From Taxawa tesnikishii (nom. ined.) (lineage: Eukaryota > Ascomycota > Dothideomycetes > Dothideales): a DNA stretch of 64,000 bases. The DNA lies in assembly GCA_030247885.1 (NCBI GenBank), contig JAPDRO010000011.1:558001-622000 (forward strand). The letters are read 5' to 3'. The notes beneath the pieces were generated by a model. The model searched no databases, was not told the DNA's origin, and saw nothing but the letters and a program-made list of their open reading frames with translations. Below are positions 4,355-55,055 of the stretch, piece by piece. Position 1 is the first letter of the stretch. Each line of letters starts with the position of its first letter. Position numbers and translations under genes: made by a program.

Positions 4355-5121
4355 TCAACACTTCACACCCTGCTCCCTGGCGACCCTGTAAATCTCGGTG
4401 CATATCTTGTCGACGTCCGTCTTCTTCAACGGCACCCTGTGGGTTCCATCCCACTCGACCAACGTCACCGACTCCCTATCGCAATACTTATCCATCAGCT
4501 GCCTGTGCAAATGCAGGCCCGGATCACTCAAGCCGTGCACATGTATGGTCGGCAGCCTCAGGATGCGATCGCTCTCGCCCGGGTACTGGAAGCCCTCGCT
4601 GATGGCGCCGGCGGGCAGGGTGGCGGGACTGCTGCTCAGCTCGCTGAAGCTGATCAACGGCTGCCTGCCCGCCAGCAGCACGGCAAACCTGTAGTCCGTG
4701 TCGGCGGTGCCCTCGCGCTCGACGCGCACCTGCTGCTCGTGCAGCAGGCTGGCGGCCAACTTCGCGCCCTGGCTGAAGCCCAGCATGCCCACCCACGGCC
4801 CCGTGCCCGCGTCTCCGTCCTTTGCCGTCCGGATCGCGTACATGACCTCCTCGGCCGCGCTGTCGTCGTCGATCTCCGCGTGTTCCGGCAGCCAGCGCAG
4901 CCACCGCCGGAAGGGTCCGCAGTCCTCGTATACGGGCACGATGCCGGGGCCGGCGTCGCAGAAGAAGGCCCGTCGGCGAAGACGAGGCGGAAGGATGGGA
5001 GGGCTTTGATGAGGGCGCGGGCTTGGGCGCGGAACACCTCGCCCGTCACGCCTCCGCCGTGCAGGCAGAGGATGCGCGGGAGGGTGAGGTCGTCGGTCGC
5101 TGGTTTGACGTTGATCGCCAT
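4355..5121 (-). CDS. FSH1-type serine hydrolase with one apparent frameshift
   Basis: An alpha/beta hydrolase of the FSH1 (DUF341) family; the substrate is unknown. The ATG at 5121 opens MAINVKPATDDLTLPRILC followed by LHGGG. The catalytic triad is visible: nucleophile serine in GFSQGAKL, aspartate in HGLSDPGL and histidine in WDGTHRVP. The end is REQGVKC. The frame changes by one base near 4967-4972, between FRLVFADG and FFCDAGPGIVPVYED, two stretches contiguous in this family. No GT-AG intron fits there. Both sides are well conserved, so a one-base error in the assembly is more likely than a true pseudogene. Expected length is about 255 residues. Confidence 0.85.
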
Positions 5122-6464
5122 GGGTCCGGGAATGTGATGGATGGGCGTGTGTGAGGGGATTCTTGCCGAGGGGTTCACCGAAGCTGTTGTTCGCGCGATC
5201 TCGGCAAGCGGCGGCGGCGGCGGCGGCGGCGGCCACTGTGTGTAGTTGGCGGTGATTGTGAGTGTGGTTCTGAGGCCGTCGCAGACAGACGACAACAAAA
5301 TAACGAACGACACAGAGCGAGAGAGTATAAACGCGTGCGCAGAAGTGTCAGATGGTTGAATATTGGACGTCCTAAAATAGAGATAGATGATGGCATGCCT
5401 TCCGTACCTGGAGGCTCGACTTCCCCGTCGGCTCTCCACACTAGAGCGTTTTCGGCAGTACATATGTCGGGTTCGGCACCCGATGGGATCGTGTCGTCGA
5501 TGCCGGCCCGACGCCGCCTTTGCTTGCAATGCTTCTATATGTACGGGCATGCGAGGATCCGATTGGCACTCAGCTGAACTGTCTTTCATACAATGCGGAG
5601 GCTTCGAGAGCCCGTTTATCGATGCTGATGCTGCTGCTGCTGCGCTTCTTTCGGTTCCTTGCGAGTGATTAAGAGTAGCATTTCGTGATACGACTGGTTT
5701 GCCAAGAAGGACTTCCTCATCCGGGAGTGAGCAAGGGGTGCTTGAACCCCCGTTATGAGAGCCACTCACGTTGCCTGGAGGCAGAACATCAATGCGTTGC
5801 TAGGCTAATGCGGTCGCTTGCACCGTAAGCCCTTACAACAACTGGATTGAAACTCTTCGAGACTAGGTGGTCTGCTTGTTCTTCAACGTGCCACTTTGAG
5901 ATTCACATGGAGGGCAGATGTAAGGAAAGGGTCGCCAGCTTCTGAGCAGGGGTGGCGGTGCAACGGGGCGGGTTGTTTGTCAAACAAATGGAGATTGTGG
6001 TCTATTTTGAAAAGAGTTTTATGCGAATGGGTTGATGTCCGCCCAGTTTCGGGTCGGCGAGTAATCTTCCATGGTTGGCGTTCTAGATTACGGATACTGT
6101 AGCACCGCCTCTATGCTTTGGTGTTTTAATGCCTCTATGGAAGCCAACAAATTCAGTTCATAACACCTGATGAATGCTATTCGAGTCCGGGCGACATGGT
6201 ATCACATGGTACAACATCAAGCCCACAATCACACAAGAAAAGCAGAAGGAGCAGTGAGTTGATAGGTATCAATTCTTCGTTGCAAGCTCATAGTTTCATG
6301 GTATCACTAGTGTTACGGAAAAGCAAGGCCATGCCATCCAGAAGCATGCCTGATTGTAGAATCATCCGATCATCCCATTGTCATGTCATCCTCCGGCTCA
6401 CTCCTCCGTCATCCTTGAAAGCTTCGGCAGTGGTCGAGGAGTCGTTGTCGTGACGGGGACGCAT
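5122..6464. other. Intergenic; GGC microsatellite, no gene recognised
   Basis: Upstream of the FSH1-type gene and downstream of the HSP12-like gene. A GGC run sits at about 5209-5232, and shorter CTG and GCT repeats at about 5627-5642. Open frames here are short and show no family features. Confidence 0.6.
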
Positions 6465-6798
6465 CTAGTTGTTGTTACCCATGCCGAGGGCGTTCTTGGC
6501 CTTGTCCATGATGGAGTCGGAGGTACCACCGTGGACGTGCTCGTCCTTGGAGCGGGAGGTCTTGTCGGCGAGGGACTGGCCGGCGGACTTGGAGTCGTCG
6601 GACTGGAGACCACGGGCGGCCTTGTCGGTGGTGTCGGTGAAGGTCTCCTTGACCTTCTCTTGAGTGGACTTGGAGGAGTCAGGAGTCATCTGAAGATTGA
6701 GGTCAGCTCGTTGTGCGCAGGAAAGAGGAACGAGAAGTGGTGGTGCTCACCTTCTCCTGCATCTTGTCGGAGAAATCCTTGCGGCCGGCGTCAGACAT
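6465..6798 (-). CDS. HSP12: HSP12/HSP9-like small stress protein
   Basis: A small, very hydrophilic stress protein; yeast Hsp12 is intrinsically unfolded and stabilises membranes. Exon 1 is 6798-6751 and exon 2 6689-6465, with a 61-bp intron, giving 90 residues. It starts MSDAGRKDFSDKMQEK, the family signature, continues with an amphipathic-helix region rich in K, D and S (STQEKVKETFTDTTDKAARG), and ends KNALGMGNNN. Length and composition match the family well. Two CCCCT stress elements lie about 200 bp upstream. The start was chosen because it is the only ATG that yields the signature. Confidence 0.9.
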
Positions 6799-8390: not shown

Positions 8391-11300
8391 TCAAGCATCG
8401 CTGTCCGCCCCGCTGGGCCTCCGCTGCTGATCACGCTCGGCATACAGCTTTTCCTTAGCCGCTTGCGCCGCCATGAGCGAATCCATATACGTCCTGAACT
8501 TGACAATCTCCCTGAGCAAGTACGCGCTCTTCTTCTCCCAATTGTTGATCGCGCGCGTGTAATTCGGGTGTCTTGGCGAGAACTGTTTTCATACGTCAGC
8601 AAGCCCGAGCCCCCTTTCCCACTGAGGGTCACCGCAAAAGGAATCCGGGAGGGGGTTAGATCAGAAACTCACGGCCAGCATAACCGCATTCCTCAACTCG
8701 TTGTGCTTCTGCAGCTCGTCCTCGACATTCTGCACGTACGACTTCAACTGCCTCAACTGATCCACCTCCATCAACTGACTGGCCATCATGCTCTGCGCAG
8801 GCGGTTTCCACTCCATGATCGCCGCCTTGTCGCCCGGCAACCGTGCCCTCACACCCCCGAACCCCTGATCAAGACTGCCCCTCAGCGAACTCTGCATGCT
8901 GGGTCGAGGCATCTGGCTGAGACTGTTGCTCGCACTGTGGTGCGCACCGCTACGGCTCGGCGGAGCGTCCGGGTTGCCGACGAGCGCCGGGTTAATGACG
9001 TTGTCACTCCACCCGTACTCGATGTTGCTGACTCCGCCAAAGAGTGGCTCTTTGCTCGAACGCGCGGACCAGTAGTTGGCCGTGCTCATGAATTCCTTTG
9101 CGATTTCGGCGGTGCCGACCTGGAACAGGTGCACCGCGCCGGTCGGCAGCGAGAGCGCCCACACGTGCGGGCGCGTTTTGCTGAAGCCCGGCGGGGGCAG
9201 CGTCGACGCGATGCAGTGGCGCAGGACGAACGAGCCCAGCTGCTCGGCGTTGGCGAGCCAGTTGCCGCCGCCCACGACGACGGGCGGGTTGCTGCCGGGC
9301 GCGCGCCCGCTGCCAGCGCCGCTGCTCTTGGTGAGGCGACGCATCGTGGCCGATTTCGTGTTGCCGGCTTTGTTGAAGGAGAAGAGGCGGAGTTGGCCCT
9401 TTTCGACGACGGCGAAGCACTCGTTCCAGCTGCGTTCTTTGGCTTTCTTCTCCGGTCCTTCCAGGTGGTGTCTGTGCTTGAGGATTCCCTCCTTCGCCCA
9501 TGGCGCGCCGACCAGGCCGAGGCTCTCGTCTTCCAAAAGACCGACGTGCGTGAAGGATTCGCCGTCCCCGGCGGTGCCTTCCTCGCGGATGATGGCCTGC
9601 GATAGGGCGTTGGCGAAGCCGATGCTCTGCTTGTAGTCACCTTGCGTGGCATAAGTACCGAAGCTGTCCACGCTCATGGTTGTCGCCTTACCCGTCGAAA
9701 ACTTGCTCCAGCTGCTGCTGCCTGCCGTGGGGCTCCACATGGAATTGCCGTCGTCGAATGATGTGCGCGAGGAGCCAACGGTCGAGGCCGGGTACGCCTT
9801 GTTTCGAGATCTTGTCTTGGATTGCCAACGGGAGGACATGGAATCTAAGCCGGTGCCGCGCCGCCCTCTGAATGACATGCTCTCTGATGGGGCCTTTGAC
9901 AGCACGGAACCTGTACGTCTCAGTGTAGACGGCAGAACAGAAAGTGTGTTTGCGTGCTGAATCGGCGCGACATGCGGGACAGGGTTGGACTGGTGCAGGG
10001 GCAACGCCTCGGTTTTGATCGAGTTGAAGAAAGATTTGAGAACGTGCTCGATGTCGAACAGCCAGCTGCGTTGCGTTTGATCGGGGTCCCAGACATAGCT
10101 CACCAGTAGGTTCGTCGGGCCGTTTCCGGTGGGCGTGTTGGGAACACCGCCTTCCGAGTTGGTACGGTTCATGGATGGCCTTATGGAGAGTCGCTTGTTC
10201 CTCTTCATGTCTATCGATGGGCGCTCCTCGCTCTCCGCGGGCAGTGTTGGCGACGTAGGTACTGAAGATGCTGTGTCGGTCCAAGGTAGTGGAGGGCGAG
10301 CGCCGACGTGAGGTGCGTTGACGGTTTCGTCAAACGCATGTGGTACAGCATCGGTTACGACACGCCTGATGGTCGGTAATGTGTTTTTAACAAACTGTAC
10401 CCGGGTCATCTTCTGCTCAATGTCTGCAAGATGCAGGTCAGTATTGAGGAGGAGAAGCGAGTAACAGATTGTATGTACAACGTCTGCGACATTGTTAGTA
10501 AACACTTGTGAGGGGCTGCCACGTATTAGCTGCGTACCTGTCGCCTTGAACCCATGAAAAGGATTACATTCACACCATCTCCTTGAGAAAGTGTCCAGAA
10601 TGCGATCCACCTGCTGCGTTTCTGCTTTCAGTATCAACCTCCCGCACAGCTTGCGCATAGCAGTGACCAAATTCTGTCCGGCAAAATCAAAGAGCCCCAT
10701 GTACGCTGTGAGGGTCCTCTTACTGACGGGGCTCTTTTCACCCAGCCAGGATGCAGCAAGTGCCTTGCCCACAAACTCCTCGTCACCATTGTATATCGAA
10801 CGTGCCCGCTCCTTGTCCTCGGCCGTTGGGTCGTCCTTACCGGCCATAGAAGGTGCTGAACTGGTGGGTGTCTCATGATGCAATTCATCGCCCTCGAGCT
10901 GCACGATAGGCAGACTGGTCGCTGAATGATACTCTGAGTTGACTTGGGCGGGGCAGATTGGTGGTGGAGATGGCGAGGTCCGGACACCTTCGAGCGGCAA
11001 CGATATATCGGAATGGGAAGATTTGCGGTTGAGCCTTTCGTTTGAAGGCTGCAGCCACACACGGTTTGAACGACCGGAGCTTGGTTGACTTCTTCCGGCG
11101 TCCCCGTTTGGGGTCGAGACCAAGAAAGTCTGTTCCACGTACCCGGACTCAGGAGTACCGCTTCTGGAAAGATGTATCGGGCTTGGCGAGACCTCAACCG
11201 TATAGGACGAGAGCGTGTCTTTCGACGCCACTCTTCCAAGCGGTGCCTGGTTCTCCTTCCCGACAGCCAGAGACAACGGCGACACCGGGCTGTTCCTGAC

Positions 11301-13316
11301 GTTGGGATTGTCGTCGGGCAAGCCGAAAGTCGTGCTGACTGCAGAAACCATGGAAGACCTGCTCCTGTCGTCCGTTTCACTGTTATCTGCAAGGAAGCTG
11401 CTGTTATGAACCAAAGTCTTTGGTCTGGCCTTTTTACTTTGGCCTTCATCCGGGGACTGTCCGGCGCTGGAGGATCGCCTCTGGGCTCGCTACTTGCACG
11501 TGGCTGTCTGATTTCAGGTACCCTAGGTTCCGATGGCAGAGCCTTGTGCAATGACGCGCCAGGTGGCGGAGTGTATCCAGAATGGAACACGGCTAAATCA
11601 TCGTCATCCTCTGAAGATGTGGGAGGTCTTGATCTCTCCTGTTCCACGGCGGACGCAGCGTCTGTGGTACTCGACGTGTTCAAGTACGGACTCATGACAC
11701 GTCTCAAGCTGTTGGGGGAAGCACTCGCTGTTTGCGCAGCCACCGCGTTGACGATTTGTGGCGGCAATGGAGGTTGCTTCTCACCCGAAACAGACTTCTT
11801 TCGCCGCCTGAAAAAGGACGCTTTCTTGTTCAAAGTCTGTTGCGTTGGATTTGTACCAGGCAAAGGCTCGCTCTTGCTCGTCTTCGGCTCCGGTCTCACT
11901 TGTGAAGCGATGTGCGGTTGACTCGGTTGTGGTCTTGGTTTTGCCTGGTCGTTTTCGTGGATTGATGATCGTCGCGAAAGCTGTGACTGTGTCTGGCTCG
12001 ACGTTTCATGAGCGCGATTGCTGGAGGAACCAAACATCCTCCTAAAGAAACCTGGCCTTTCCTGGGAAACTTCCGGCGGTGGACTGGTCTGTTTTTGCGC
12101 TGCATTGCCAATGACAGAGGCGCTGTGGTTCAGCTGCTGTAGTTCCTGAGCTTGGGTCATAGTGCGCATGCTGCTCGCTCGCACAAAATCGCTGGCCTGC
12201 TCGCGAATTTCGTGAGGAATCTCAGGAGTACTCGCTTTGGACTTGGTGTTGTTCATCGCCTCTGTGGATACCGTCGAGCCTTTCCGAAGCGCGCTTGGCT
12301 TGTACACCAGGGAGCTGTTCGAGTATGATGACTGCAGCTGCGCGGGAGATGAGAGCGGATCAGTCGCTCTTCGTGGCCCAGAAGGTATGGTGGGTTCTGG
12401 GCATGACGCCTCGTAGGGACTGAACACTGAGGGTACCGGCCTCCCCTTGCGAGTATTGAGCCTCCAGCATTGTCTGTCGGCGCGCTGGTGAAAAGGTTGT
12501 CCAGAAAGCGATGATCGTCGCTCGCCGATCGAATCCCGGCACCGAACCTGCTCGTCCCAAGTGGCGCTGCGTAGCCATAGTCGAAGCTGGCGGCCGTACC
12601 GGTCTTGTGTGTCCCGCTTCTCTGTATCTCTGAGCCGCTCCGGCTCAACACCCTGCGACCACTCCTTGCTCCTTGCGTGACCTGCGGACTAACTGTAAAG
12701 TTGGAGCCGCTATTGCTACGTCTGTCTCTGGAAGAGACGTGACCAGAATACTGGCTAGAGGCATCGTCCATGCCATTGCGATCGTAGCCCGACGACAGGG
12801 AGGAAGAGTAGGTGTGTCCACGTGCGCGCTGGTTCAGGCGAGACAGGAGAAGTTGAGGCGGGCTTGCGGCGCCGCTGAAGTCGTCGTGGCTGCTCACATA
12901 TCTCGGACCAAAGTCTCCGAGACCCATTGTTGTAGTTGTGGTGTTTGCGCCTGGTATCCTATCCAGAGACTCGAGAAGATTGTCGACGACCGAGTCCCGC
13001 GTGTCACTAGACCAAGACAGACCATGCGAATGTCTCGGCCGGCGAGCTTCCGCTTCCTCTTCCCCTTTCCAATGCCTCTCGGCGGATGGTATGTCGCGTC
13101 GGGGACCGCGATTCTCTGCTCTCGAGGGCGACCGAGCAGGCTCTTTCCCTTTCGCGCGCCGTTTGGAGGAGGACTGTGGTGTTGAGGGGGCGAGTTGCGC
13201 AAGGCACCCTTTGAGCTGGTGCGCACGCTCAGAGCGGCCGGCGCGATTGAGGGTGAGCTATGTGCAGGGGCAGCAGAGGGTGCAGAAGCAGGAGGTTGAG
13301 GCCTGGTGGGGGCCAT
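8391..13316 (-). CDS. Sec7-PH domain Arf guanine nucleotide exchange factor (Syt1/EFA6-like)
   Basis: Loads GTP onto Arf-type GTPases in membrane traffic. The ATG at 13316 has a good Kozak context. The order is a long Ser/Pro-rich N-terminus, a Sec7 domain at about 10330-10880, a PH domain at about 9080-9500, and a C-terminal coiled coil ending ERDQQRRPSGADSDA. The Sec7 glutamic-finger position is kept in LKAETQQVDRIL, and the core NTDLHLADI is clear. Two introns are supported: 10484-10537 (54 bp, in frame, no stop) and 8583-8672. Predicted length is about 1590 residues. Three apparent one-base losses interrupt the N-terminal half, at a G5 run (13186-13190), a C4 run (12443-12446) and near 11473-11487. 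The conserved domains are intact. Confidence 0.9.
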
Positions 13317-16657: not shown

Positions 16658-19600
16658 CTATTGATAAGGCGTCCACTCCTGTCCTGGATAACTCGTCCCC
16701 CTCATCTGCCCACCCTCCTCATTCCCCAGTCTTCCTCCCCCTCCCCTCCCTTGCCCACTTCCACCACCCTCATTCCCATACCCACCATATCCACCACGCT
16801 GCTGGCCTCCTCGTCCCTTGACATAATACCGTCCCTCAGACGCCATGTGCAGCGGCGCATCCCTGAACCCCGAATCCCCCTCTGCTGCTGCGGAGAGTAC
16901 GGCGGACTCGGGTATCCATAGCTTCCCTGCTGCTGTTGCGCGTAGGGGTCCCGTTGGCCCCTATCCTGTTGTGCCTGCGAAGAGTACGGGAACTGCTTCG
17001 ACGGCGGAGGCAGCGGTGGGATCCTCTCTCCGCTCTGCTGCGGCGGCGTAGTGTAGAGCGCAGGGGTTGAGGCCTGCTGTGGGGGACCCGGGACCTTGTT
17101 GGCGGCGGCGCTGTTGTTGTTGTAAGGCTGCGCGGGACGCCGTGACGTCGTCGTCGTTGTTGTCGTACTAGTTGTCGTCGTCGTGGTGGAGCGGCGGTAC
17201 GGAGATGCAGATGTGGGTGTGGGAGCGGGTGAGAACGACTGTACTCCGTACATGGCAGGGCTGGAAGCTTGCTGTGGCGCGTCCTTAAATCCCACGTCTC
17301 CACGCTGCTGTGACTGTGACTGTGGCTGCAGTGGCGAAGCGCGTGTGATCGCCTGCCCGATCGAGCCCATAGCATAGTCGTGCGGTCCCGATGAACTGCG
17401 TGAGTGCACAGGGGACACCACGGGAGAGGTAGGTGACTGGCGTTGAGTCGTGTGGTCGTACTGCTGCATCTCATTTCCTCCTTGCGGATTCGCAGGACTT
17501 ATGACACTACCAGTGGAGGACTGGCGAAGATGCAGGAGCGCGGGTTCGCGCGGGCGCGGCTCGTACGACGGCTGGCGAGGGCGGTCGTTGTACGAGGGCT
17601 GCGCTGCTGGACAGGCTGGACGGCGCCTGGCTGAACGCGATACGCTGTTTGCGGGGAATGGTATGTTCGTACTGTCGCGGCAGTTCGTGGTCAGGACCGT
17701 AGCTGTTCCGATACGAGGCTGCTGTCGGCTGAAAGGCTTCTGGCACGTTAGAGTATCTCTGTCCTGGACGGAGTCCCTCGCTGCGTAGTCTCCTGTGCTG
17801 CTGCGCGGATGGATAGGCTTGCTGTGGTTGGGCTTCGTACGATGGCTGGTGAGGATGATCGTTATACGATGGCTGGACGGGTTGATCATAATATGCTGAC
17901 CGCCCATTATACGCCACCTGATCATCATACGCAGTTTGACTTTGAGCCTGGTTGGCCGGGGCGTACCACCCACCAGGCGGGATCGGCATCTCATTCTGCA
18001 CTCTTGCACTCCTCTCTTGCGCTTGCTGCTGCCACTGGGGACCAAATGTCGAGTCCTCCACTCCTCGTGACTGGTACTGTCCCACGGGTAGCTGAGGAAT
18101 GTTAGCGTACTGCTGCCTCTTCGTCGCTTCATAAGCCGGATAAGCAGCCGCAGCGGAAGGCGTGCTATTCCCCGAGCTCGAATTTCTCGGCTGTGCTTTC
18201 ATCAACTTGTTGGGCTTTGTCGTATTTGGGCCCGCGTTTGTATTGGAGCGACCGAAAAGTGACCCGAGTCGAGAGAAGCGGTTCTTCTTGTCGGGATCAG
18301 GCTGAGATGCGGTCGTCGACGATCTCTGTACCTTTTTGAGTGTTATCGGCTTCACCGTGTTATCTCTTGCCTTTTGAGCAGCAATGACGGCGGGGTCTTG
18401 ATCCTCGAACCGCTGCTTCTTTTCATCGCGTGGCAATGCGTCGCCGATGCTGGACATGCGACGAAACGACTCGAAAATGCCGGAGCGTCTTCTCGATTGA
18501 ACCTGGGGTACTGCATCACCAGAGAAAGTTCGCTCAATGTTGATTGCGTTAGCCTGTGGGTTGATCCGGCCGCCGGGTGCGGGAGGGAATCTTTTCGTTG
18601 TCTCGTCGTTGGTTCTGGAGGCCCCACACCAGGCAGTTGATATTCGATGCCTTGCTGGCGGGGATCGATGAGAGGCGCTGCAAATCGCTGGGAGCGGATG
18701 TCTTGCGGAACGTTGTCTTTGGGCGGAGGTATAGGGACGGCTTCATACACAGCCTCTTGCTCAGGCCGTGTAGGTATCTCATACTCTCTGCGCGCAGCAT
18801 ACCGCTCGCGTTCTTGCTGCTCGTGTGTCCCAGACTGCCACCCTTCTATGTATGGAACGTTCTGTTCTGGATACTCGGTTTGTGCAACCAGTGCCGCCCG
18901 TGTCCGCTCAGCAACAACATGAGGTGGAATCGTGTGTGGATAGCCCGGAGGCGTCTGATCGTCAACATCTACGTCCTTAACCTCGTTGTCCTGACGAACT
19001 GAAGTCGGCAACGGTGCTTCTAATCCAGCGTCGTGGACATACGAAAGAGGCGTAGAGTGTTGCCCCTTCTCCGGATTAGCGACTTTGTACCTTCCGTAAG
19101 CAAACCTCGTCTGGTCAGGGATGGTCGGAGAACCCGGCATCGTCTCTGGTGACACAGTCTGGTAGGGGTGAACCGGTGCACTATGCTCCAAGCCCTGCCC
19201 TTCGGGTTGCTCGACAGAAGTTGCTCGCATTTCTTGCTGTGACGGCAGACTAGCACGGCCGACCATTGCAGGTCTCGATGACTCCTCCGAAGTCATCTGC
19301 TCTAGACGAGCGCGTTCCGCAGCCATACCCGCTTCCTCGTCATGGACAGCCGGGGCTTCTGGTTGAGGGAGAGGAGGCATCGGTTCGCGCTCCATACTCG
19401 AAACGGAAGATCGTCGTGAAATCGCCCGACTGATTCCTTCTTCCTCTTCCGGATCGAAAGCACTCACTTCGGACGGCCGATGAGGCTTTTTCCGTCGCAC
19501 TGAGCCGGCACTACTGCTCTTTTCCCACGACTCTGACATGGAATCCCTTGTGAGAGATTCGTCGCCGGGTTGTTCCGCACTCTCTCCTTCATGCGTAACA

Positions 19601-22600
19601 AAGGCGCTGTTCTCGTTCACCGCATGCCGCTGCCCAAGCGCAGTAATGCTCGGAGCCGGAAGCGCTTGCGCCACAGTCTCCGGCGCCGGGGTTGGCACTT
19701 CACTTTCACCTCCTCTCACCACACCGACATCTTTCCCCTCTCGCTCCTCTAAACTCCGAATTGGGTGCCTGCTTTCAGTCGGCGTAACGGAATACAAATC
19801 ATCTTCCTCCTCTTGTGGTGTCAATACCGCGACCTTCGCTTGCTCATTTTGCGCTCTCTGCACGTTTCTTTCGGGTCCGAGCTCTGGAAACGCCTCCAAG
19901 CCCGGGCTGGGTAAGACACCCAACCTAGCTTGAAGGTCGCCGGTCCCGAGTGTGCCTCTGCCTCCCATACCCTCCTTTGCATCGTCTTTGCCATCATCCA
20001 TATCCCAGACTTCCCTTCTCACGGGATTCTTCTCCAGATTTCCGGTGACATCCACGTTCCTCGCGCTACCCACCTCTTCATCCCCGAACCCATGGCCCAG
20101 GACCACGTTAGCTGGCATATCCACACCCATCCCTTGAGCGTCTGTCGAGGCAAAATCCGAGCTCGTGGCAGCCCCTGGGAAAGCGGGATCTCCATCTTTG
20201 CTGCTCATTACAACGCTCGAAGGACGGGTCCCAGAAGCGGATCTGCTTTTGGAACCCTCGCGCAACCGGTTAAAGGTCGCTGACAGTCTGTTACTAGTCC
20301 TCGATGGTGCACGACTCGACGGCTCCGTAGCGGTACGTATTGAGCCATTCGTTGTGGACAGTGCGGGTGAGGCGCTTGAAGCGCGGTCAGGTACGGCGGC
20401 GGGAACTGGAGGAAGGTCGGGCAACTGAGTCGTGGCATGCTGGGGCGTCGGTTCAGGCATGCGAAGAGCATCACTTGGCTGATGCATGCTTGCGCTTGAG
20501 ATCGGAGTGTGATCGGAGTGGGGTTCGACGGGATCGTTGTCTTGATCTACTGCCGCAGTGGGAAAATCAGCGGGTAGAGGTTCGATGTGAGTCGACGACG
20601 CTGCTTCTTGCTTTGCCGGCATTGGTCCTATAAAGGTCGACGATGCTGCTTCTTGCTGTGTGTGTACTGACATGTTCGCATTTCGATGGCCTGACGCTGA
20701 CGCAGCACGCGGGAACACAGTCCTCGAAGTAGCCGCAGTCGACGCGGAAGAAGCGGTCGCAGGCGGCGTTAGGGTTGAAGTAGGAGCCTGTAGCGCGCAA
20801 AGGATCAACACTGAACCTTCTACAAAGTGGTGGACGAGAATAGTAATTGACATTAGGAGATATAGAAGGCTGATGGCCTAGTGATATATGCATATCGTCG
20901 TTCAAAACCCCGAGAAACGTCGGTGCTAAAGGAAAACTGCTGCTTCGTGGTTACATGCGAAAAGTGCGGAAGTGGTCGAGATATCAGTACTGCAAGCGGA
21001 TACTTCTGCCGTTTGAGCCAACAGACGTGGACGAATGGGAGGTTGTGTTGTGCGGAATGAGTGAGACGAAATCAATCTACCTTATCGCCCCTGCTCTGAC
21101 CGAACCTCTGCTTTCCCTTCGCGAACAAGCCCTTCGCGCCAACCGTCGCCTTTCCACCAAGGAGACCAGCCGAATGCAGCAGATCTTTGCCTTTGGCCTG
21201 CATCTTGTCTACTCCACCGCCCTGCTGCGGTATTGTTGACCCGGAAACCGAACGCATGGCCGTGCTTGACCTCCTCTGAGCGGCAGGCATGGGAGAGTCC
21301 ACTGCTTCCGTCGCGGACGAATCCCGGTTCGAGGAGCCCAACTGCTTGGCGATCTTGATAATGCTGGGGCTGTGCTTGTGGCGTACACTGCCGAGAGTAG
21401 CGCTGGGCTTGAGCGTTGTATCAGCGGCAAGATGAGCGTGTTCTGGGTGAGAAGATAAAGTTGTATTGAGCCAGTCGCGTAGACCGGTATCCATAGACGC
21501 GAATTGTTGTCTGGTACTGTTGTAAGTACTTATGCGCTCAGGTGCTGATCTGAGCGCAAGTATTTCGCGGAACGGCGGGATGCGAGCCGTTGCACCTGGA
21601 GACGTTGGGGTTGCAGCAGAAGGCGACGAGGGACGGGCTTCGGTCTGTTCATGGAGAGGCTTCTGAGCTATCGGATCTGGTAGCGGCTTCGAGTTGAGAT
21701 CTGGCATAAGCTGGGGCCCTTCGATAGGAGACGGTGGCGCATCGCCACTTTTGAGCTGACGGGCCCGCTCATTGTGCATATCAGGCGAAGCTATGGGCGA
21801 GACTGGGCCACCGGCGAGGTCTATCGCGGATGGGGTATCTAAGTGCTGGCTATGCAAGCCCGTGACATGCGATACGGCTGCAGCCTCCGAAGGAGCATGC
21901 AGCGGTCCCAATGACTCGGCAGCCGGCTCGGGATCATCGGACTCCTCGCTGACATTAGTGTTCACGACGTGCAGACCAGAAGACCTTGGCCTCTCGTACG
22001 CCTTGGGCAGTTCCGAGCCGGTGACGTCGGGGTCAAAGAGTCCTTTGGATCCGGTTTCCCAACTGAAGCGTTGGTCCAGCATTCCTGGACCGGACCGGGC
22101 ATCGGACTGTGCAGGTTGTGCGGACTCGATAGGCTTGGTGACAGCCTCGGCGGGTGGTTCTGGATGGAAGGGTTTCTCGGATTGGCGGGGCTGATTCAGG
22201 TGTTGATGCGCGAATGATGAAACAGCAGTTGGTGCATATGCATCCAAGCTTGCCTCAAGAGCATTGGTGAGCTTGGACATGACACCGCCCGGTGAGGCAG
22301 ATTCTGAATGATTCGTGGCCAGCTGGGTCTGCGGTTCCGGTGGAAGGGGAGCTGACTCTACAACAGTTGGCGGAGTCGCTTCCCTAGTCTGATGGGACTC
22401 GGGCGCTACTGAACTTGTTGCAGGTTCGGGAGTTGGTGCTTGACCGGTGGTGTGTAGTTTCTCCATGTTCGCTGGCGCATCGATGGCGTCTTGTTCACGC
22501 TGTTTGTCCTCGTGAACAGCTTCCATGGCCCTCTCCGGGCTGAGGCTACGTTCGATCTCCCTTCGGAGACGGTCACTCTCCATGTCGTAAGGCGATTCAT

Positions 22601-25335: not shown

Positions 25336-25373
<38 letters not shown>

Positions 25374-25629
25374 GGTTGAGGTTCATCGTAGCTTCCGTAT
25401 TCGTCGTAAGGGTCATATCCTCCCCAGTCATCACCGTCATAAGTGTAAGATTTTGCCTCTACCCATCTCTTTGTCTTGTTGCGGTTGACGTTTGGCTGGA
25501 AGGAGGGGCCGGGCCATTAGTCGCAGGGGGCCGGTCGCTGCAGGAGTGTCAGCTGGTGCGGCGAAGCGGCAGAGAGGTATGGTCGGGCAGACATACAACG
25601 GTGACCTGGCCTTTTCCTCGAACTGCCAT
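16658..25629 (-). CDS. Giant low-complexity fungal protein, function unknown
   Basis: Probably one gene of about 2860 residues. The ATG at 25629 begins MAVRGKGQVTV; a 101-bp intron (25596-25496) leads to a conserved-looking N-terminus (NRNKTKRWVEAKSYTYDG), then poly-Gln and poly-Pro. Most of the rest is disordered Ser/Pro/Glu sequence. Ordered islands are IAALKSAGDALGAALMAS, FREILALRSAPERISTYN with MDTGLRDWL, and IFESFRRMSSIGDALPRDEK. The tail is Gln/Tyr/Pro-rich, then RGG-rich, ending SYPGQEWTPYQ. A 293-bp intron (21080-20788) with matching phase joins two halves; without it these would be two genes, the first ending GQSRGDKVD at 21072. About five apparent one-base losses occur (22989-22992, about 18525, two in 17585-17630, and 16876-16880). 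I cannot name a function. Confidence 0.65.
25334..25371. repeat. Hexanucleotide (GTTGCT)n encoding poly-Gln on the minus strand
   Basis: About six units inside the giant gene. On the minus strand they read alternating CAG and CAA, giving about 12 glutamines followed by six prolines. The mixed codons make it less prone to slippage than a pure CAG run. Confidence 0.85.
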
Positions 25630-38172: not shown

Positions 38173-40708
38173 TCACATGATGACCTGTTACTACATTAGC
38201 TTCTCATCTAAGTACCGAAAGTACACCAAGCGTTGTACTTACACATTCACTCTCCTGCTTAGTAGCTGGAATCCCCATCTCAGCAAATGTCTGGGGCCCC
38301 TTCCCGGACGGTTTCCCTGCCGGTTTTTGCGTCGCTGCGGCCTGGCCCGGCGTCGGTGGCTTCTGGATACCAGCAGCTGCTGATGCTGGCGGCTGCGTTG
38401 GGTTGGTTGTCGGCACGCTGGGCGGCCGATTGCTGGGTCGGGAGCTCTGTCTGAGATCGCTCTGGCTCTTCTGGGGTCGGGTGGTTTCGGGACGGTTGAG
38501 GTTGGGCGTGCTGGGCGAGGGCTGCATGCCGCCAGGCTGGCCGGGAGGTAGGGGTTTGTTGTCGAAGGTCTCGCGTCTGCGGGGTGGCAGGGAGCCGACT
38601 GGGGCGGAGAAGCCGATGTCGAGGGCTTGGAGTGGAGCCTGGGGCGGTTGTTGCGATGGCATGGGCGGTTGGGGGGTTGTGGTGCTTGTTGAGAGGGCAT
38701 TGGGGGTGCTGGACCACTGTTGGGGCGGAAGTTTTGCATTCCTGCCGGCCCTGAGGCGACGCGCTGCGCTGGTGCCGGTCTGGGTTGCGAGCCTTCAACG
38801 GTCGTAGCAGGTCGCGGTAAGGGCGCCATGCCCGCTGGAGGCACGGACGGTCGACCGCCGCCGTAGGGTCTGCCTGGTGTGGTTGCGACCGAGGTCGGGC
38901 GAATGCTTGGGTCGAGATGGAATGCGGAGCTTGGCCGGTCATCTGGGTAACCTGGACCCGGGCGAGTCGTTGCGGGACGTGTCGTCGGAGGGCGGAAGTC
39001 GGGGTGGATGAAATCGGACACAGTGGATGCACGTGGCGGGCCGTCGGCGAGAGGGTAAGGTGCAACAGACGCCGGCCTATCCGCTGCAGGAGGAACGGTC
39101 GGAGGCCGATCGTCAACCGGGTACGGTGTTGTGCCACGAGGTGGAGGAGTGTTCCCATTGAACTCACCCTGATCGGCGATCGAAGAAAGTCTCGGGTTTT
39201 GCTGTGACAGCCGTTGCGGTCTCTCTCCTCTCCTCGAGCCATGCGTAGACTTTATGCGGCCCAAAGCGACGTTTTCATGATCTTTGCGCGACAGCACCTG
39301 CTTTTGGGAAATTCCTCTTATCCGTCCAGGCGCATCCTTATTGCCGTTTGCGGCAGCCTTTTCATACCAACTCAGCGCTTGATTGAGGTTCTGCGGCACA
39401 TACATGCCGATCTCGTTGAAGTAGCCCATGGCAAATTCGGCTGTCGAAAGACCGGCCTGTGCTGCTCGCTGGGCATGGATGTAAGCAAGCTCCTCGTTCT
39501 TTGGAAACAACCCCTCGTGGCCGACGAGGAACCACTTGCTGATTGCCATGTCGGCTTCCGGCTCTCCTTGTTTAGCGGCTAAGGCATTGTAGTGCAGAGA
39601 CAAAGCCGGGTTGAATTCACAGCCAAGCGTGCCGAGTTCATATGCTGAACCCATTCTGACCTGCGCTTTGGAGAACTTCAGATACGCCGCCTTCTCGATG
39701 TTAATGCGCGCTTGTCGTTCGTCGTATGGCAACACGCCTTCTGGTAATTCGATCTGAGGCAGCTCCCGCGCAAGCAGCATACCACAAACATAAGCACCCT
39801 GCGGAGCATTTTCGTCTGCAGTCTCTGCCGATTTGCGGATGAGATCCACCCCCTGCGGAGATCTTGCTGTTGCCCATGCTGACCGCGAAGCGTCATCATA
39901 CCAAGCCGGTACAATGAAGCTGAATCGCCCATGTCCACACCCTGGTGGTAGTGTTTCAACGCCTTGATGGGGTCATTCGATGCCTCGTAGAGCATGCCTA
40001 TCCTGTACTCTGCTCTTGCGTATCCTCTGTCTGCCGATCTGGAGTAGCACCGGAAAGCCTCCTTCTTGTCCTGCCTCATGCCAAACCTGCCAAACTCCAG
40101 CCACATGCCGCGCATGAACTCAGCTTTGGGGTGGCGCTGATCCGCAAGAAAGCTGACAATATTCATCGCATCGATCTTTAACTGGTGTTCTATTCTCGGT
40201 GTAGCTGGTCGCGCGGCCTGGGTGGCCTGGAGTCGCTCCTCGTTGTCCATGGCAATGCCCACATATTGCAGCGTATCTTGCGCCCATGCCAGCTGCATTT
40301 CTGGGTCGTTGGAGGTGAGAACGGGCACTCTAGCATTTTCCAGGGTGGACTCGAGCTCTTCATCGGAAGGCGGTACGTTTGGTGGTGGGTGAATAAGTTT
40401 TGGAAACGGCGAGAGGTGTGGTAGACTGCTTCGTCTGGGCGGATAAGCGCTCACAGATGCTCTGTTGTTCAGCTCGAGATTTGCAATGCCTTCCTGGATC
40501 TGGTTCGACATCTCGGGCATGTGTCTGCGCCGAGCAAATGTCAGTCTGGTATCAGTATACCAAATCGGTGGATGCGACCCCGCTCCCCAGTGGCAGCCTT
40601 CTCATGCGATGTAGCTACTGACCGTTCAGGGGTTGGCGCAACCAGCTCGGGGGCTGGAGGAGGCATATAGTAGTCGTCAAAGCCTCCCGGTACAAATGTT
40701 GCGCTCAT
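38173..40708 (-). CDS. SKT5: Skt5/Chs4-like Sel1-repeat protein with C-terminal CaaX box
   Basis: Yeast Skt5/Chs4 activates and localises chitin synthase III at the bud neck. Exons are 40708-40623, 40524-38243 and a 12-bp terminal exon 38184-38173. The first intron (98 bp) joins APTPER to HMPEMSNQIQEG. Tandem Sel1 repeats fill about residues 155-430 (AEYRIGMLYEA, AKQGEPEADMAISKW, ALSWYEKAAANGNKDAPGR). A Pro-rich tail follows, then GPQTFAEMGIPATKQESEC. The last intron (58 bp) adds VIM, making CVIM, the same prenylation box as yeast Skt5. Apparent one-base losses interrupt the frame at a C5 run (39849-39853) and a G6 run (38671-38676); both sides are conserved, so assembly error is likely. Confidence 0.88.
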
Positions 40709-41217: not shown

Positions 41218-41498
41218 CTAATCTCCATTGTCTGGTTCGTCCGTGTTGAAGCGCAGCATGGCCTCAATCCAAGCCACCGCGCCTGCCAAGCGGGTGTCTC
41301 GGACGTCCTTGGGGGACTGCACAGCCGCAAATGCTCCATGCTTGCTCTTGCTTTGGAATAGATGCCAGTCAAGACAACTTCTCCAATGCTCAGCCGGACT
41401 TTCAGCACCTCACAAGCGTTTAGCCTACAGTTTTCACACCATGTCGAGTGTTGGTTCCGAAAATTTGACCATATCCGATCTTTGCAGTTCTTCAGCAT
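41218..41498 (-). CDS. Small unknown protein with one apparent frameshift
   Basis: The ATG at 41498 opens MLKNCKDRIWSNFRNQ, followed by NACEVLKVRLSIGEVVLTG. The frame then shifts at a C5 run (plus-strand G5 at 41311-41315), and the other frame continues KDVRDTRLAGAVAWIEAM and ends RFNTDEPDNGD at 41218. Both parts look coding and the break has the same form as those in known genes nearby. Predicted length is about 92 residues. More exons upstream are possible. No family is recognised. Confidence 0.4.
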
Positions 41499-47827: not shown

Positions 47828-48715
47828 TTAACTATCAGTCGTCAAGATGGCTGCGTTGTTTAGCCGTCGCAATACCTTACAGATAGGAGCATTGTCTGTC
47901 CTGGTTTGACGGTTCAGGGAGCTCGAGTCGTCGCGCTTGCACGGCGACTCGTGAATCAGCAACGACTCGTACATGCTGGGATCATGGTCAATATCAGAGG
48001 CAGACGGTTGGGTCCGCAGGTCATTGACAGTGGTAAAGGCCGCCATCTGGGCTCCGAACGGAGCAGCCCTGGCTACAGGCCCTACGGACATCTCAACAAC
48101 GTCCTCGGGGTCCCTGCAGTCTTATACACAGCCCAGTTGTCAGTAAAGGCCGGGAATGAGGGCCCGTCCCAGGCCCTTGGTTCACCCCTCGTCTCCACTT
48201 CCGACGTGATGTCGCACAAGAGCCGGAGGTAATGAGCACACGGTAGCTTCGGCAGCCGTATACCGACAGCGTGCGCCATCCTAATCCTGATCAAACCCTC
48301 TTGTGCCGACCGGAGTTGCGCGACTAGCGGCCGCGCATCAGTCAACTAGGCAGAAGGGGATCCTCAGGTGGCTGTTGTATAGGCGGTCCAGGTAGGAGCA
48401 CTCGTACGCAGGCCGGCGGGTTTAGTTACGGTTAACAGGCAGGCTTGCGAGAGCGTCGTCGAGGGAAGCCGATATACGATTGCCCTTTTCGTTGCTGTGC
48501 CTCCAGGATCGTCCAGACCATAGCTCTACGGGCAGCCGTCGCGGTCGTGCCATTACGAACTGTATCACGGACACCGCCGAGCAACCTCTGAGGAAATTGC
48601 CGTGACTGTAGCATGTAGGCGCCAGCGCTGTGGACCGTCCATCGCCCGTCGCTATCCGGTGTGGACCCTTTCTTCGGCACCCCAATGGCGCGCGTTCCAT
48701 GCCCATGGGGAACAT
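47828..48715 (-). CDS. Unknown protein, at least two exons, apparent frameshifts
   Basis: The ATG at 48715 opens MFPMGMERAPLG. After a C4 run on the plus strand (48680-48683) the frame continues VPKKGSTPDSDGRWTVHS, then LLGGVRDTVRNGTTATAARR. A second exon begins near 48345 after a CTAG acceptor: TDARPLVAQLRSAQEG, then LPCAHYLRLLCDITSE and AFTDNWAVYKTAG. A one-base loss near 48107-48114 joins it to DPEDVVEMSVGPVARAAPF, and the end is LRRLNNAAILTTDS. The boundary between the exons is unclear. No family is recognised. The coherent protein character across breaks is the main support. Confidence 0.4.
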
Positions 48716-49662: not shown

Positions 49663-52600
49663 TTATCCTCTGGCAAGTCTTTCGAGCTTGCCTCGGATGC
49701 CGTCGGAAAACCTCGTCGCCGCTCCCTCGTCGATGACTTCGATGCAGTGCGACAGAACCGTGAAAGCGTGGTCCATCGGAACCTGAGTGCCGTCGCGCTT
49801 AGAAAGGCAAGGCACACCATCGCGCTTGGTGAGGTATCGCACGATCGATGGGTGGTCGGCTGGGAGGAGTCCACCGCGAAAGATGGTCCGGGGAACATGC
49901 CGTTGCTGTTCGGTGTCAACGACTCCTTGTGCGTAAGGCTGTCGGTCCAGAGGATCAGTGCCACACGGTAGATGGCGCCTGCCCACCAGGGAGGACGAAC
50001 GCCCCGGGGCATAGACCGGATGATACGGAACACCTGGCCGCAATGGAACACCGCCTCCTCAATGTCGGAGATGCAGCGCTTGTGTATCCAGACGAGTTGA
50101 GCGTAGGTCCCATCGAAGCCCTCGCGACGTGCGAGTCGCTCGATTTCAGGGAAGTTTGTCACGGCGTTCAAGCTGATGAGGTGAAACATGACCAGGTTGG
50201 CCTGCATCATCGCGCACATAGGGTTCGACTTGCAATACCTTTCCGCCAGTTCGTACCACCTTTGCAATAAAGATTGCACCTCCTCGAGGCGCACCTTTGT
50301 AGATGCCGCCGTGACGGCCCGGCCAGTCTTGTTCCTCGACTGGATAGAGTCGGAGAAACAGCTGATGAGTTGGCTATAATGGTGTACCATCGACTGCAGA
50401 GGGTGGAGCAAAAGGCGAAGTTGCAGTGCGGTCATTTCGATACCGTGGGACACCATCTCGTCGTCAAGGAAGTGGCGGAACAGATCGCGGAGAGAAAGAG
50501 GACGAACACCGGAGCCAACGGAGGACATGCCGTTGCCGAACTCGTGGACGTGCTCGAAAACGGAGGACCACTCCGCTGCGCTCTTGGCCATCCATAGACG
50601 GTCAGCATCTGGCATTGGCGCGCCAAATTCGGTGACGGAGAACAAAGGAGCCGTGTCGTGGAACAACGCAAGGTCCTGGTCAACCATCACCCATGAGTAA
50701 ACCAGTCTGCTCCTGCTCTCATGTTGGATCCAGTCGGTCCAAAGGTGGTCTGTATTCGCACGCTGATCCATTGTCGTAGGAGCGACCGGCTTGTCGAGCA
50801 CGCCAGAGTGGCGCAACATGTACGAGTACATGCCACGCTGACCCATTGCAATGTCCATTTGCCATTTGTCTCCGCTCCACGCGGCCTGGACTGTAAAGAG
50901 AAGGGCTGCGTGCAGGACAATGGGGTCTCCAGACATGACAATGTTACGCTCGATCAAGTCGAACAGCGAGATACGGCAAGCTTCAGTGAGCCCACCAGTG
51001 AGCCACCTCGCCTCTACGGATGGGATGTTCATCGCGCCTTGGGCGATCATCATAAGGATGAGAAGGCTGGACGCCCGATCGTTGTAGCAGTGCATGAGCT
51101 CATTGGCATCCAGAATACCACGCGACGTCAGGGAGTAGTAACGCTCGAAGCCGTTGGCATACGATCGGAGGAAGTACTCCAAGACGCGGGCGGGTGGCAG
51201 AAGAACAAAGTTGAATCCGGATTGGTGAATTGGAGAGCCTCCGTGCGGAGGAGTGTACCATGCCTTCACGGTGGATTTCGAGAGCCTTGTGCAGGAAGGT
51301 CTGCGTGATGGCGAGCAGCTTGTCGCGAGTACTCTCATGCAGCTGCATCACGGTCAAAGACTCTGCACCAGCGAAATCGCTCTCGTCCCAGTTTGGTGTC
51401 CAGTTGCTCCAGCTCTCGTGGTTGCGAAGCGTGTGTTCCAGTCGTTCCAGATTCATCTTGGCTGTGGTGGGACACGAGCTCGAAGGAATGGTAGGTGTGC
51501 AACGAAACACACTCCAGCCGTCCTGTGCAGCGATGATGGCTCCGAGGTCTGACACACCGCTCGCGGTCACAGAAGTCGTCGACGTATGCCGGCCATGAGG
51601 ATAGAACATCGCTGCGGAGCTACCGATCTCCAGATCAGAAAACGCACGCTCCACCTTTGGTGTCTCAATCGGCGTGATCATTGGACCAACACCAGCATTT
51701 GCGATGTCAGGCATGATAGTCAACATGGGATCTCCACTAGGTCCAAGGGGCATGACATTCGGGTCGAACCCAAGGTCGGGTCCCATCATCAGGTCGGGGC
51801 GAGCCATGGGGTCAAAGCCCATTGGCATCTGCATCTGCGTCCAATCGAGCATGAATCGCGGGCTTGACTGCTCCGAAGGCTCCTTGCTCATCTGCGCGAA
51901 CTCATTGTATCCGGAAAGCGGTGTGCTCTGGACGAAGCCATTGGCGGGTGTGGGAAGAGGTGAGAGGGTCTGAGGGTTTGGAGGACTCGGTCCGCTGGTC
52001 GGCTGCTCGAAATATGGGGGTGGTGGGCCATCGACAACGGGTTGTTGTTGTTGCTTCTCCTCTGGGATTGTGGGAGGCACTTGGGGTGCGTTGGCATTGG
52101 GGCTGCCTGCAGGTTTGATCTGCGCTGGCTGTTGTGGAGGAGTTCCACTTGGCTTGCCCGGAACGTTCTCTGCTGCAACGGTCACATCGGTACCGGGGAT
52201 GACGCCACCGTTGGCAGCGATTGTCTCGGCGGTGATGAGTCCCATACGGTTGGCATTCTTCGATGATCGGCGTGTTGGTCGGAGTGTACAACGGAGGTTA
52301 CGTCCTGCACATCGACTGCAAGGGAACTTCTTATCACACTTGGTCTTCGTCTTTGCACAATTGCTGCACGCAATTGGCGTCCGACCGGCAGACTTTGGAA
52401 TCATGCCATTGGCGGCAGGTATGGGCTCCTGGTTCTGATCCCTGCCGTGTACTGTGTAGTGCCTCTGGAGGAGGTCGCTGACTGAAGTCAGCTTACGGTA
52501 TACCACGATCGAGGTCGAAGTAACCTACCGCCGAGCAAACGACATGTGGCAGGTAAAGCACTTGAACGGCTTTACATTGGTGTCTGCACAGAAAGAGCAT

Positions 52601-52720
52601 GGTCAGCACACACGCACGACGGGGTAGAGAAGGCGGAGAAATGCACATACGAGTCAAGATATGCCTCTCGAGGTGTTCGTCTCTGGTGAAAGAGTGGCCG
52701 CAGTAGGTGCAGAAGACCAT
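49663..52720 (-). CDS. Transcription factor with two C2H2 fingers, a Zn2Cys6 cluster and a fungal-specific domain
   Basis: Exons are 52720-52651, 52583-52529 and 52477-49663, with introns of 67 and 51 bp; about 980 residues. Finger 1 is CTYCGHSFTRDEHLERHILTH; finger 2, CFTCHMSFARR, is completed across the second intron by DLLQRHYTVH. A Zn2Cys6 cluster follows at once: CSNCAKTKTKCDKKFPC and CAGRNLRC. A Pro/Met-rich linker comes next, then the helical fungal-specific regulatory domain (LLILMMIAQGAMNIPSVEAR, LFTVQAAWSGDKWQMDIAMG). The same finger combination occurs in the melanin regulators Cmr1/Pig1, but orthology is not claimed. Apparent shifts lie near 51256-51270 (plus one) and 49861-49872 (minus one). 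The end is GKLERLARG. Confidence 0.85.
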
Positions 52721-54573
52721 GATGGCCGGGGAGGAGAGGTAGTACCGCTGGTATGGGTAACTACGTATAAGAGAAGGGGAGGGATGAAACGAAACAACGG
52801 TATATGAAACGGGCGGGGAGCAGAGAAGGAGGAGAGAGCAGAGATAAGAAGGGTTGGAGGTATCGGAGGATTTAAGGTGGCACGGGAGGGAAGGCAGGTG
52901 TATAATTATGGGTGTTGGTAGGAACACCAGGATGGGGCTTATTTACTCAGCTGCGGATCCATTCGCGCGTTGATGACTTTCGGTCGACCTCAGCACTTTC
53001 TGACTGTGTACGAGTGGATTTTGGGGAAGACGGGCTACCCTAGACGTACTAGCACCGTAGCGAGACAAGCGCATGCGGGTAGGCAGAGGCAGGGCCGGGA
53101 CCAGCGCTTGAGCCAGCGTGAGCCAGGGGCTAGAGTTGTGCATAATCAAGATATCATGGAGGTCCCGTTTCATGCGGGCGCAGAGCATGGGCTCCAGCGA
53201 AGCATTGTCTTGGATCTCACTCGTGCTCAGACGGACCTGCTCGTTAACCTTGGTGTGCAATCAGGCCTAAGCTGGCACCCCGGCTCGTCTTCGCACCGCT
53301 TCCTTCATCCACATCAGTCCTACGCAGATCGCGTCAGTGGTGGTGTCAGTGCCACAGCGCCAGCCAAAGCCAAGCAAACCCACAGACACGAGGCGGCCGT
53401 GTACCGTCTTCGCACCGCTGCACAGGCTCACTATTGGGGTTAGGTACATGGTGCGAGTGCCGCAAGTGGTTAGCCCCCTCGGAGCCTCTGGTGCTCGAGC
53501 ATCTCACGTCTCGTTCCATTGCATTCCATTCCCGCCCGCTCCTGGCCCGCCTTTGCATAGGGAGGGAGCTAACTGACCGCGATGTGCGCGTGTTGCTGCT
53601 GGTGCTGGAGCGCTCCGGCAGTAGAGTTGTTCCTCGTTACTTGCGGCGCGGCGCTCGTTATCCATCCGGGAGATTGGACATGGCCGCGCTAGGAACGGGG
53701 TCGCAGCGCTAGACGGCGGGCGGAAGGCAGCGCGTCCTTGGCATGACGAAAACAGGAAACGACCGCCCGTCGAACCTCCCTCTTTTGGCATGCCTGCTCG
53801 CTCGTCGCTCGCTTATCCGAATACAGGCAGGCTCTGCCACAGCAAGGCGCCCAGTTCAAGCCGCATCAGCCCCTCGCGTCCTTCGACCAACGTGATTTGG
53901 ATACAGTGGACACAGTAGATAGAAGCAGGTCCTCTAACCACATGCAGCACACAGGCCGATAAGACGACGGGAGTATTCGCAGGGGACCCATAGACTTGGA
54001 CGAGCCAGATCAAGACCGCGTCCAGGCCGCGGCTGTGCCGTGCGACCCCCAATCCTTCAACACAACAACAACAACAGCAGCAGCAGTAGGGATCCTTGAA
54101 CCATACGCGTTGTAGAGTACATGGGTGATGCAGCTAGCTCATAGCAAATCACGTAACCCGCCTGTAGTTGTGAGGGCAATAGATAGGCTACTACCTGCAC
54201 GGCGCGGTGGCGGTCTGACGAGCCAGCGCAGCACAACCATCACAACCACCACAACCTGACACGATTGCACAATCCACGATCTCTTGGCTGGATCTGTAGC
54301 ATGCTGGTAGCTGGTAGCTGGTAGCATCGCAATGCTAGAGGCCCGAATTCTTCCCACTGGCAGGAGTGTAACTGAGAGTAGGTTAGCAGCATACTGTCTC
54401 GGGGAAATCAGATCGAGGATCATCAAGTTTGTGTACCATTGACCTTACCCCAACCGGCAAGTATCCACATGTGCATCTCTGCCTACCAGCGCCCTGGTTC
54501 CTGGACGTGGCCCGTCCTTCTACATAGTGACTTCGTGACACAAGCGCCAAAGATACACGGCTACACGAGCACA
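52721..54573. other. Long spacer upstream of the transcription factor, no gene seen
   Basis: 1.85 kb. Long upstream regions are common for regulators. It holds a short AAC/AGC repeat at about 54060-54090 and a GCTGGTA repeat at about 54302-54325. No supported gene. Confidence 0.5.
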
Positions 54574-55055
54574 TCAATGGCTGGAGTGCTGATGTCTCTG
54601 CCCCTCGCAATCACGCACCACAGCGCCAGCCACGTTCGCCGACTCCTCTTCTTGGGAGCGCCGATCCTCAGGAAATTCTCCGAGATGCAGCACCGTTATG
54701 CGTTCCTGTTGGCCCGGTGTGAGTCGTCGCGTCGCACACCCGTGTTTCCAGCACACCCCTCGCGGGCGCAAGCCATTGCGTTGCCAGCACAAGCAGCAGG
54801 AGGAGTCGCGACAGGCTGACTGTCGTAGATCGATTCGCTCATCGCGCCAGCCTAAAAATGGACCTTGGCAGATCCTGCAGGGGTCATGCGTGGGCAGATC
54901 TACCGGCCGGTGCTCTAGACGGCCTAGCGTGCCTCGACTTTCTGCTCCATGCAAGTGCTTGGCCGCTGCGATAAGATTGTCGTGGCGACGGAGACGATTC
55001 CATTGGCACGGAGAGAATACTCTATCTCAATCCGCAGAGTCCATTGCTCATCCAT
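54574..55055 (-). CDS. Small Cys-rich protein of unknown family, one apparent frameshift
   Basis: The ATG at 55055 opens MDEQWTLRIEIEYSLRANG. The frame shifts by one base between about 54940 and 55015. The second frame reads HDNLIAAAKHLHGAESRG, then the cysteine-rich core DPCRICQGPFLGWRDERID, SACRDSSCCLCWQRNG and GVCWKHGCATRR, and ends LGEFPEDRRSQEEESANV and further to 54574. The CxxC pairs and CWKH suggest a metal-binding fold. I believe similar small proteins occur in other dothideomycetes, but this is memory, not a search. Predicted length is about 160 residues. Confidence 0.5.

What the first reader, a model, noticed from the sequence alone, without database searches (positions are those of the whole stretch)
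4355..55055. Recurrent one-base losses at G/C runs break otherwise conserved genes
About sixteen frame breaks in eight loci need one added base to restore a conserved or coherent reading: 4967-4972, 11473-11487, 12443-12446, 13186-13190, 16876-16880, 17585-17630 (two), about 18525, 22989-22992, 38671-38676, 39849-39853, 41311-41315, 48107-48114, 48680-48683, 49861-49872 and about 54940-55015. Roughly ten fall in or beside G or C runs of 3-6. bioF, bioDA, SED5, NTH1 and fluG are clean. One sign and one context point to homopolymer under-calling in a long-read assembly. If the breaks were real, this would be a burst of pseudogenisation in essential-type genes, which is unlikely.
Basis: partly seen in the sequence, partly recalled or inferred. 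Interest (0 to 1): 0.75.

Follow-up and report, generated by a model that had tools for sequence, protein, structure and literature searches.

The report
Nanopore run-length errors break fungal genes
Many genes in this soil-fungus genome look broken only because the long-read assembly dropped single bases, often in short runs of the same letter; the genes themselves are very probably intact, so this is a data-quality problem and not biology.

Summary
The window lies in the genome of Taxawa tesnikishii JES_119, a desert-crust black fungus assembled from Nanopore reads (194.6x, Guppy 3.4.4) plus 25x Illumina. Its paper reports 97.4% complete BUSCO genes for the Illumina assembly and 92.9% for the Nanopore one. 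An independent public protein, otherwise identical to the window, runs unbroken across two of the claimed sites. Homologues or domains support six of the sixteen claimed breaks; one of the six is misplaced by about 45 bases and sits at an A run. A coding-sequence HMM supports five more, two of these only as a net shift. Five have no support here. In 314 kb from eight stretches (window included) the HMM apparent one-base losses and 6 events of the opposite sense, together one per 2.6 kb of coding sequence; G/C runs of 4 or more lie within 12 bases of 17 of the 50 losses, three times the expectation. The window is no worse than the other stretches taken together, so there is no local burst of pseudogenes. 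Interest is low.

The parts
4358..5121 (-). FSH1-family serine hydrolase gene (start codon chosen by eye; the HMM segment is 4358-5463), frame break at about 4964-4975 beside a GGGCC stretch
   Evidence: PF03959 matched in two frames: profile 5-50 in ORF 4657-5799, profile 72-211 in ORF 4358-5347; frames read by eye; HMM del at 4902
8394..13316 (-). Sec7 + PH_9 gene (Arf exchange factor type by domains), three frame breaks; span is the HMM segment
   Evidence: PF01369 and PF15410; homologue matches run through frames -3, -2, -1, -3
13186..13190 (-). break 1 of the Sec7 gene, at a C5 run (minus strand)
   Evidence: 18 of 119 homologues matched in both frames, 11 with adjoining query positions; HMM del 13205
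12430..12448 (-). break 2 of the Sec7 gene, at a G4 run
   Evidence: P0002 is continuous across it; 90 of 119 homologues; HMM del 12368
   Evidence: P0002 is continuous across it; 71 of 119 homologues; HMM del 11455
16705..20853 (-). long gene with low-complexity stretches (deposited model H2203_005503), HMM events at 18614 (del) and 17948 (opposite sense, or two dels)
21075..25629 (-). unnamed long gene, HMM del at 22955 (reader: 22989-22992, C4 run)
38207..40520 (-). Sel1-repeat gene, break at 39849-39853 (G5 run) and HMM-only break near 38671-38676 (C6 run)
   Evidence: PF08238 in both frames, PDB Sel1 hits for one frame, HMM dels 39924 and 38791, frames by eye
49666..52720 (-). Cmr1/Bmr1-type transcription factor gene, likely true intron at about 52582-52633, breaks at about 51250 and 49866
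   Evidence: 120 listed proteins; Zn_clus and Fungal_trans domains

Best explanation
The frame breaks are consensus errors of a Nanopore-based assembly. Base calling of that age tends to shorten runs of one base, worse for G and C than for A and T; residual errors survived assembly and cut genes into frames one base apart. Shown here: the breaks, their sign bias, their enrichment at runs, their presence in most sampled stretches, and a continuous independent reading at two sites. Inferred: that the independent contig comes from short reads of the same strain, that the same cause applies at the sites without such a reading, and that Illumina correction was missing or incomplete.
For: Organism and data type. 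BUSCO complete 97.4% (Illumina) against 92.9% (Nanopore) for JES_119. P0002, 1330 aa, matches the window at 924 of 924 and 338 of 340 residues in two frames and over about its first 70 in a third, continuous where the window changes frame twice. Homologues in successive frames with at most 30 bases of extra DNA between them in 17 of 18, 60 of 90 and 62 of 71 cases at the three Sec7 breaks; median extra DNA -11 and -31 at the two Cmr1 breaks, against 52 at the Cmr1 intron. 50 del against 6 ins in 314 kb at penalty 1e-4; 24:4, 41:5 and 67:17 at 1e-6, 1e-5 and 1e-3. Planted events were found about equally: 105 of 114 del, 119 of 132 ins. A G/C run of 4 or more within 12 bases of 17 of 50 dels against 11% expected. 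Runs of 5 or more extend further in 3 of 80 cases for G and 8 of 86 for C, against 23 of 122 for A and 23 of 129 for T. Literature passages: in reads, deletions are the most frequent error, run length is underestimated above about 5, C and G are worse (PMC8486125); systematic Nanopore errors are mainly homopolymer indels that shift frames and inflate pseudogene counts (PMC8011154).
Against: The methods name a MaSuRCA hybrid assembly, which should carry Illumina accuracy, and for sister strain JES_115 BUSCO goes the other way (Illumina 90.2%, Nanopore 92.6%). 6 of 56 events have the opposite sense, among them the well-supported one at about 51250, which is not at a run. Only 23 of 50 dels have any run of 4 or more within 12 bases (18% expected). 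In PMC8011154 unpolished Flye drafts have more insertions than deletions (14,394 to 439; 18,718 to 5,039), and deletions lead only after some polishers. No error-free fungal sequence served as a false-positive control, methylation-linked errors were not tested, and no reads were examined.
Confidence: 0.95

Rival explanations
1. Real, recent pseudogenisation, or a mutator lineage (for example loss of mismatch repair) that shortens homopolymers in the living strain.
For: One-base changes at runs are a signature of mismatch-repair loss (recalled, no call); the assembly as deposited carries the breaks.
Against: P0002 has no break at two sites; the Illumina assembly of the same strain has more complete BUSCO genes; the pieces on both sides of the breaks still match their homologues; 35 of 92 coding segments of 500 bases or more carry a break, which a free-living fungus would hardly survive (inference). 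Mismatch-repair genes were not examined.
Confidence: 0.02
2. Unrecognised introns: the frame changes are ordinary spliced introns that a reader without tools took for breaks.
For: The deposited models skip DNA near breaks (P0001 at about 18512-18594; P0122 at about 51177-51258). At about 18525 an intron cannot be excluded. At 12446, 30 of 90 homologue pairs leave more than 30 bases between the two matches.
Against: In most homologue pairs at the five breaks checked in Sec7 and Cmr1 the two frames meet or overlap with little or no extra DNA, in contrast to the Cmr1 intron with a median of 52 bases. P0002 translates straight through two sites. The stretch skipped in P0122 encodes a block kept with small changes in all seven homologues printed.
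Confidence: 0.02
3. Programmed -1 ribosomal frameshifting at runs.
For: The sense of the shift and the run context would fit a -1 slip.
Against: A contig of apparently the same organism encodes the protein without any shift at two sites. Several genes carry more than one break, and the contexts listed differ and include A, C and G runs; no motif search was run.
Confidence: 0.01

Closest known systems
Systematic homopolymer errors of Oxford Nanopore reads and consensus sequences (PMC8486125, PMC8011154, PMC6591954; passages seen)
   Same: Runs of about 5 and longer are shortened, G and C runs fare worse than A and T, coding frames shift and spurious pseudogenes appear.
   Different: Nothing in kind; here the assembly is described as hybrid, so errors at this density are more than its description suggests.
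Gene-fragmenting errors in long-read assemblies (Kastor, PMC12007338; start of the abstract seen in the listing only)
   Same: Frameshifts and premature stops that appear to pseudogenise genes.
   Different: That work is on small genomes; this is a 29-Mb fungal genome.

Membership tests
Nanopore homopolymer under-calling artefact | Assembly built from Nanopore reads | tested here: met
Nanopore homopolymer under-calling artefact | Strong excess of losses over gains | tested here: met
   50 of 56 events, similar power for both signs on planted events
Nanopore homopolymer under-calling artefact | Events concentrated at homopolymers, G/C worse | tested here: met
   G/C run of 4 or more within 12 bases: 17 of 50 against 11% expected; A/T 6 of 50 against 8%. 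Under half (23 of 50) have any such run that near
Nanopore homopolymer under-calling artefact | Spread over the genome and not local | tested here: met
   11 events per 31.7 kb coding in the window; 33 per 91.4 kb on contig C12; 12 per 21.9 kb over five other contigs, where two stretches had none and one had seven
Nanopore homopolymer under-calling artefact | Independent accurate sequence of the same organism lacks the break | tested here: met
   P0002 at two sites; that its contig comes from short reads of the same strain is inferred; other sites could not be tested this way
Nanopore homopolymer under-calling artefact | Reads themselves disagree with the consensus | not testable with these tools
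   No reads available
Real pseudogenes | Break present in independent sequence of the organism | tested here: not met
   P0002 is continuous at two sites; the other sites were not testable

The most novel reading that the evidence does not exclude
A minority of the breaks is real. The best candidate is the break at about 51250 in the Cmr1/Bmr1 homologue: its net sense is opposite to most others, it is not at a run, and 115 of 120 listed proteins match both frames around it. If real, this black fungus would carry a disrupted copy of a regulator that is linked to melanin in other fungi (recalled).
Probability: 0.04. Interest if true: 0.35.

Novelty: not a real feature. Interest (0 to 1): 0.1.

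Why it matters
It is a warning about one public reference: about one apparent break per 2.6 kb of coding sequence, in 35 of 92 sampled coding segments of 500 bases or more, and at least one deposited gene model that skips a conserved block as an intron beside a break. Gene-loss, pseudogene, intron-count and selection analyses on this assembly would be misled. The authors' own short reads should suffice to correct it.

Tried and rejected
Introns as the cause were tested by homologue spacing and rejected for five breaks in two genes (three in Sec7, two in Cmr1), though at 12446 30 of 90 homologue pairs leave more than 30 bases between matches; not excluded at about 18525. A local burst was rejected by sampling other contigs. 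The first protein search found only the deposited model of the gene at 16.7-20.9 kb, so breaks there could not be checked against relatives. The PDB search with one FSH1 frame gave nothing; the one with a Sel1 frame gave Sel1-repeat proteins. Rfam and ARAGORN found nothing in the window. The rarity of long G/C runs lacks a fungal control genome here, so I use it as support only. The HMM intron at 10516-10647 is doubtful, as P0002 matches straight through it.

Full report
What the window is. The window is G000:C3:558001-622000 of a 29.37-Mb genome in 34 contigs. Two stretches of it are 100% identical to deposited proteins of Taxawa tesnikishii (P0001 = H2203_005503, over 63% of the query; P0122 = H2203_005514, over 90%), a fungus of the Dothideales from desert soil crust. 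The describing paper (PMC11195213; I saw the abstract, the section list and twelve search passages) gives strain JES_119 with 38 scaffolds and 29,383,553 bases, 194.58x Nanopore, Guppy 3.4.4, 25.38x Illumina, a MaSuRCA hybrid assembly, and BUSCO complete 97.4% for Illumina against 92.9% for Nanopore. For its sister strain JES_115 the order is reversed (90.2% and 92.6%). That JES_119 is T. tesnikishii I take from the matching assembly size. The word homopolymer does not occur in the paper's main text.

Are the breaks there? I checked the list of sixteen in three ways. First, by homologues and domains. The FSH1 domain is matched in two frames, which by eye meet at about 4964-4975. For the Sec7 gene I used 119 of the 120 listed homologues (886 found; P0002 was kept apart). 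They match the window in successive frames, with both frames seen at about 13188 in 18 of 119 (11 with adjoining query positions), at 12430-12448 in 90 (65 adjoining) and at 11429-11435 in 71 (68 adjoining). At most 30 bases of DNA lie between the two matches in 17 of 18, 60 of 90 and 62 of 71. The likely true intron near 52600 shows as a median of 52 extra bases (35 of 120), against -11 and -31 at the two breaks. Sel1 repeats occur in both frames around 39849-39853. Listed homologues are related to each other, so these counts are not independent.

Second, by an independent reading. P0002 (1330 aa, source code 'lgn', one 6,653-base contig) equals the window at 924 of 924 and 338 of 340 residues in two frames and over about its first 70 residues in a third, and it runs without interruption across the frame changes at 12430-12448 and 11429-11437. 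I read 'lgn' as the Logan assemblies of public reads; this is recalled and comes from no call. If the contig is from the same strain, these two breaks are not in its DNA.

Third, by a coding model. I wrote an HMM with coding phases on both strands, short introns and equal penalties for a missing and an extra base, trained on the window and 200 kb of contig C12. In the window it calls nine apparent losses and two events of the opposite sense. Nine of the sixteen claims have a loss to about 115 bases away; for six of the nine that is more than 32 bases. The pair at 17585-17630 has one call of the opposite sense about 330 bases away, equal to two losses modulo three. Five claims (16876, 41311, 48107, 48680, 54940-55015) have no call at any of four penalties, and no Pfam family was found in the frames tested there.

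Is it more than chance? Over 314 kb (window, 200 kb of C12, five 10-kb stretches of other contigs that were not used in training) the HMM losses and 6 gains in 145 kb of coding sequence. With looser or stricter penalties the ratio is 24:4, 41:5 and 67:17 (1e-6, 1e-5, 1e-3). Planted controls were recovered about equally: 105 of 114 losses (2 called as gains, 7 missed) and 119 of 132 gains (1 called as a loss, 12 missed), with a median placement error of 5 bases and 90% within 32. There was no error-free fungal sequence to measure false calls; the few gains bound them from above. The losses lie near runs: a G or C run of four or more within 12 bases in 17 of 50 against 11% expected; an A or T run in 6 of 50 against 8%; any such run in 23 of 50 against 18%. 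In the 264 kb, runs of five or more extend further in 3 of 80 cases for G and 8 of 86 for C, against 23 of 122 for A and 23 of 129 for T. No fungal control genome was available for that comparison.

Where? The window has 11 events in 31.7 kb of coding sequence, C12 33 in 91.4 kb, and the five other stretches 12 in 21.9 kb, two of them none and one seven; 35 of 92 coding segments of 500 bases or more carry a break. So the density is a property of the assembly and not of this window.

Interpretation. Nanopore reads of that age have deletions as the most frequent error, shorten runs above about five and treat C and G runs worse than A and T (PMC8486125, passages). After Dcm motifs, wrong run lengths made up most consensus errors in a 2019 benchmark (PMC6591954, passages). 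Such errors shift frames and inflate pseudogene counts (PMC8011154, passages). In that last paper, however, unpolished drafts have more insertions than deletions, and deletions lead only after some polishers, so the sign bias here also depends on how the consensus was made. The deposited model P0122 skips about 51177-51258, a stretch that encodes a block kept in the seven homologues printed, and its C-terminus runs on in another frame past 49866 than its homologues do.

Against this reading: the stated hybrid assembly should have removed most such errors; 6 of 56 events have the opposite sense; under half of the losses have a run of four or more within 12 bases; methylation-linked errors were not tested. 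The paper's discussion says that depth allowed different programs for the two well-covered strains, which leaves room for a long-read-led assembly, but I have not seen which assembly was deposited.

Verdict. Eleven of its sixteen sites have support (two of these only as a net shift), one place is corrected, one missed break is added, and the one-sign claim is softened.

Noticed in passing
49666-52720 (-): Homologue of transcription factor Cmr1/Bmr1 (names from database hits) with a break at about 51250 whose net sense is opposite to most others and which is not at a run.
   Followed up: partly
about 51177-51258 (-): The deposited model P0122 (H2203_005514) skips a conserved coding block, and its C-terminus follows another frame than its homologues.
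   Followed up: yes
32429-33475 (-): Short-chain dehydrogenase frame (PF00106) about 16 kb from Cmr1; a melanin-pathway role was not tested.
   Followed up: no
L031 (C18:100001-110000): Seven apparent losses in 6.3 kb of coding sequence, nearly three times the sample mean, while L032 and L033 have none.
   Followed up: no
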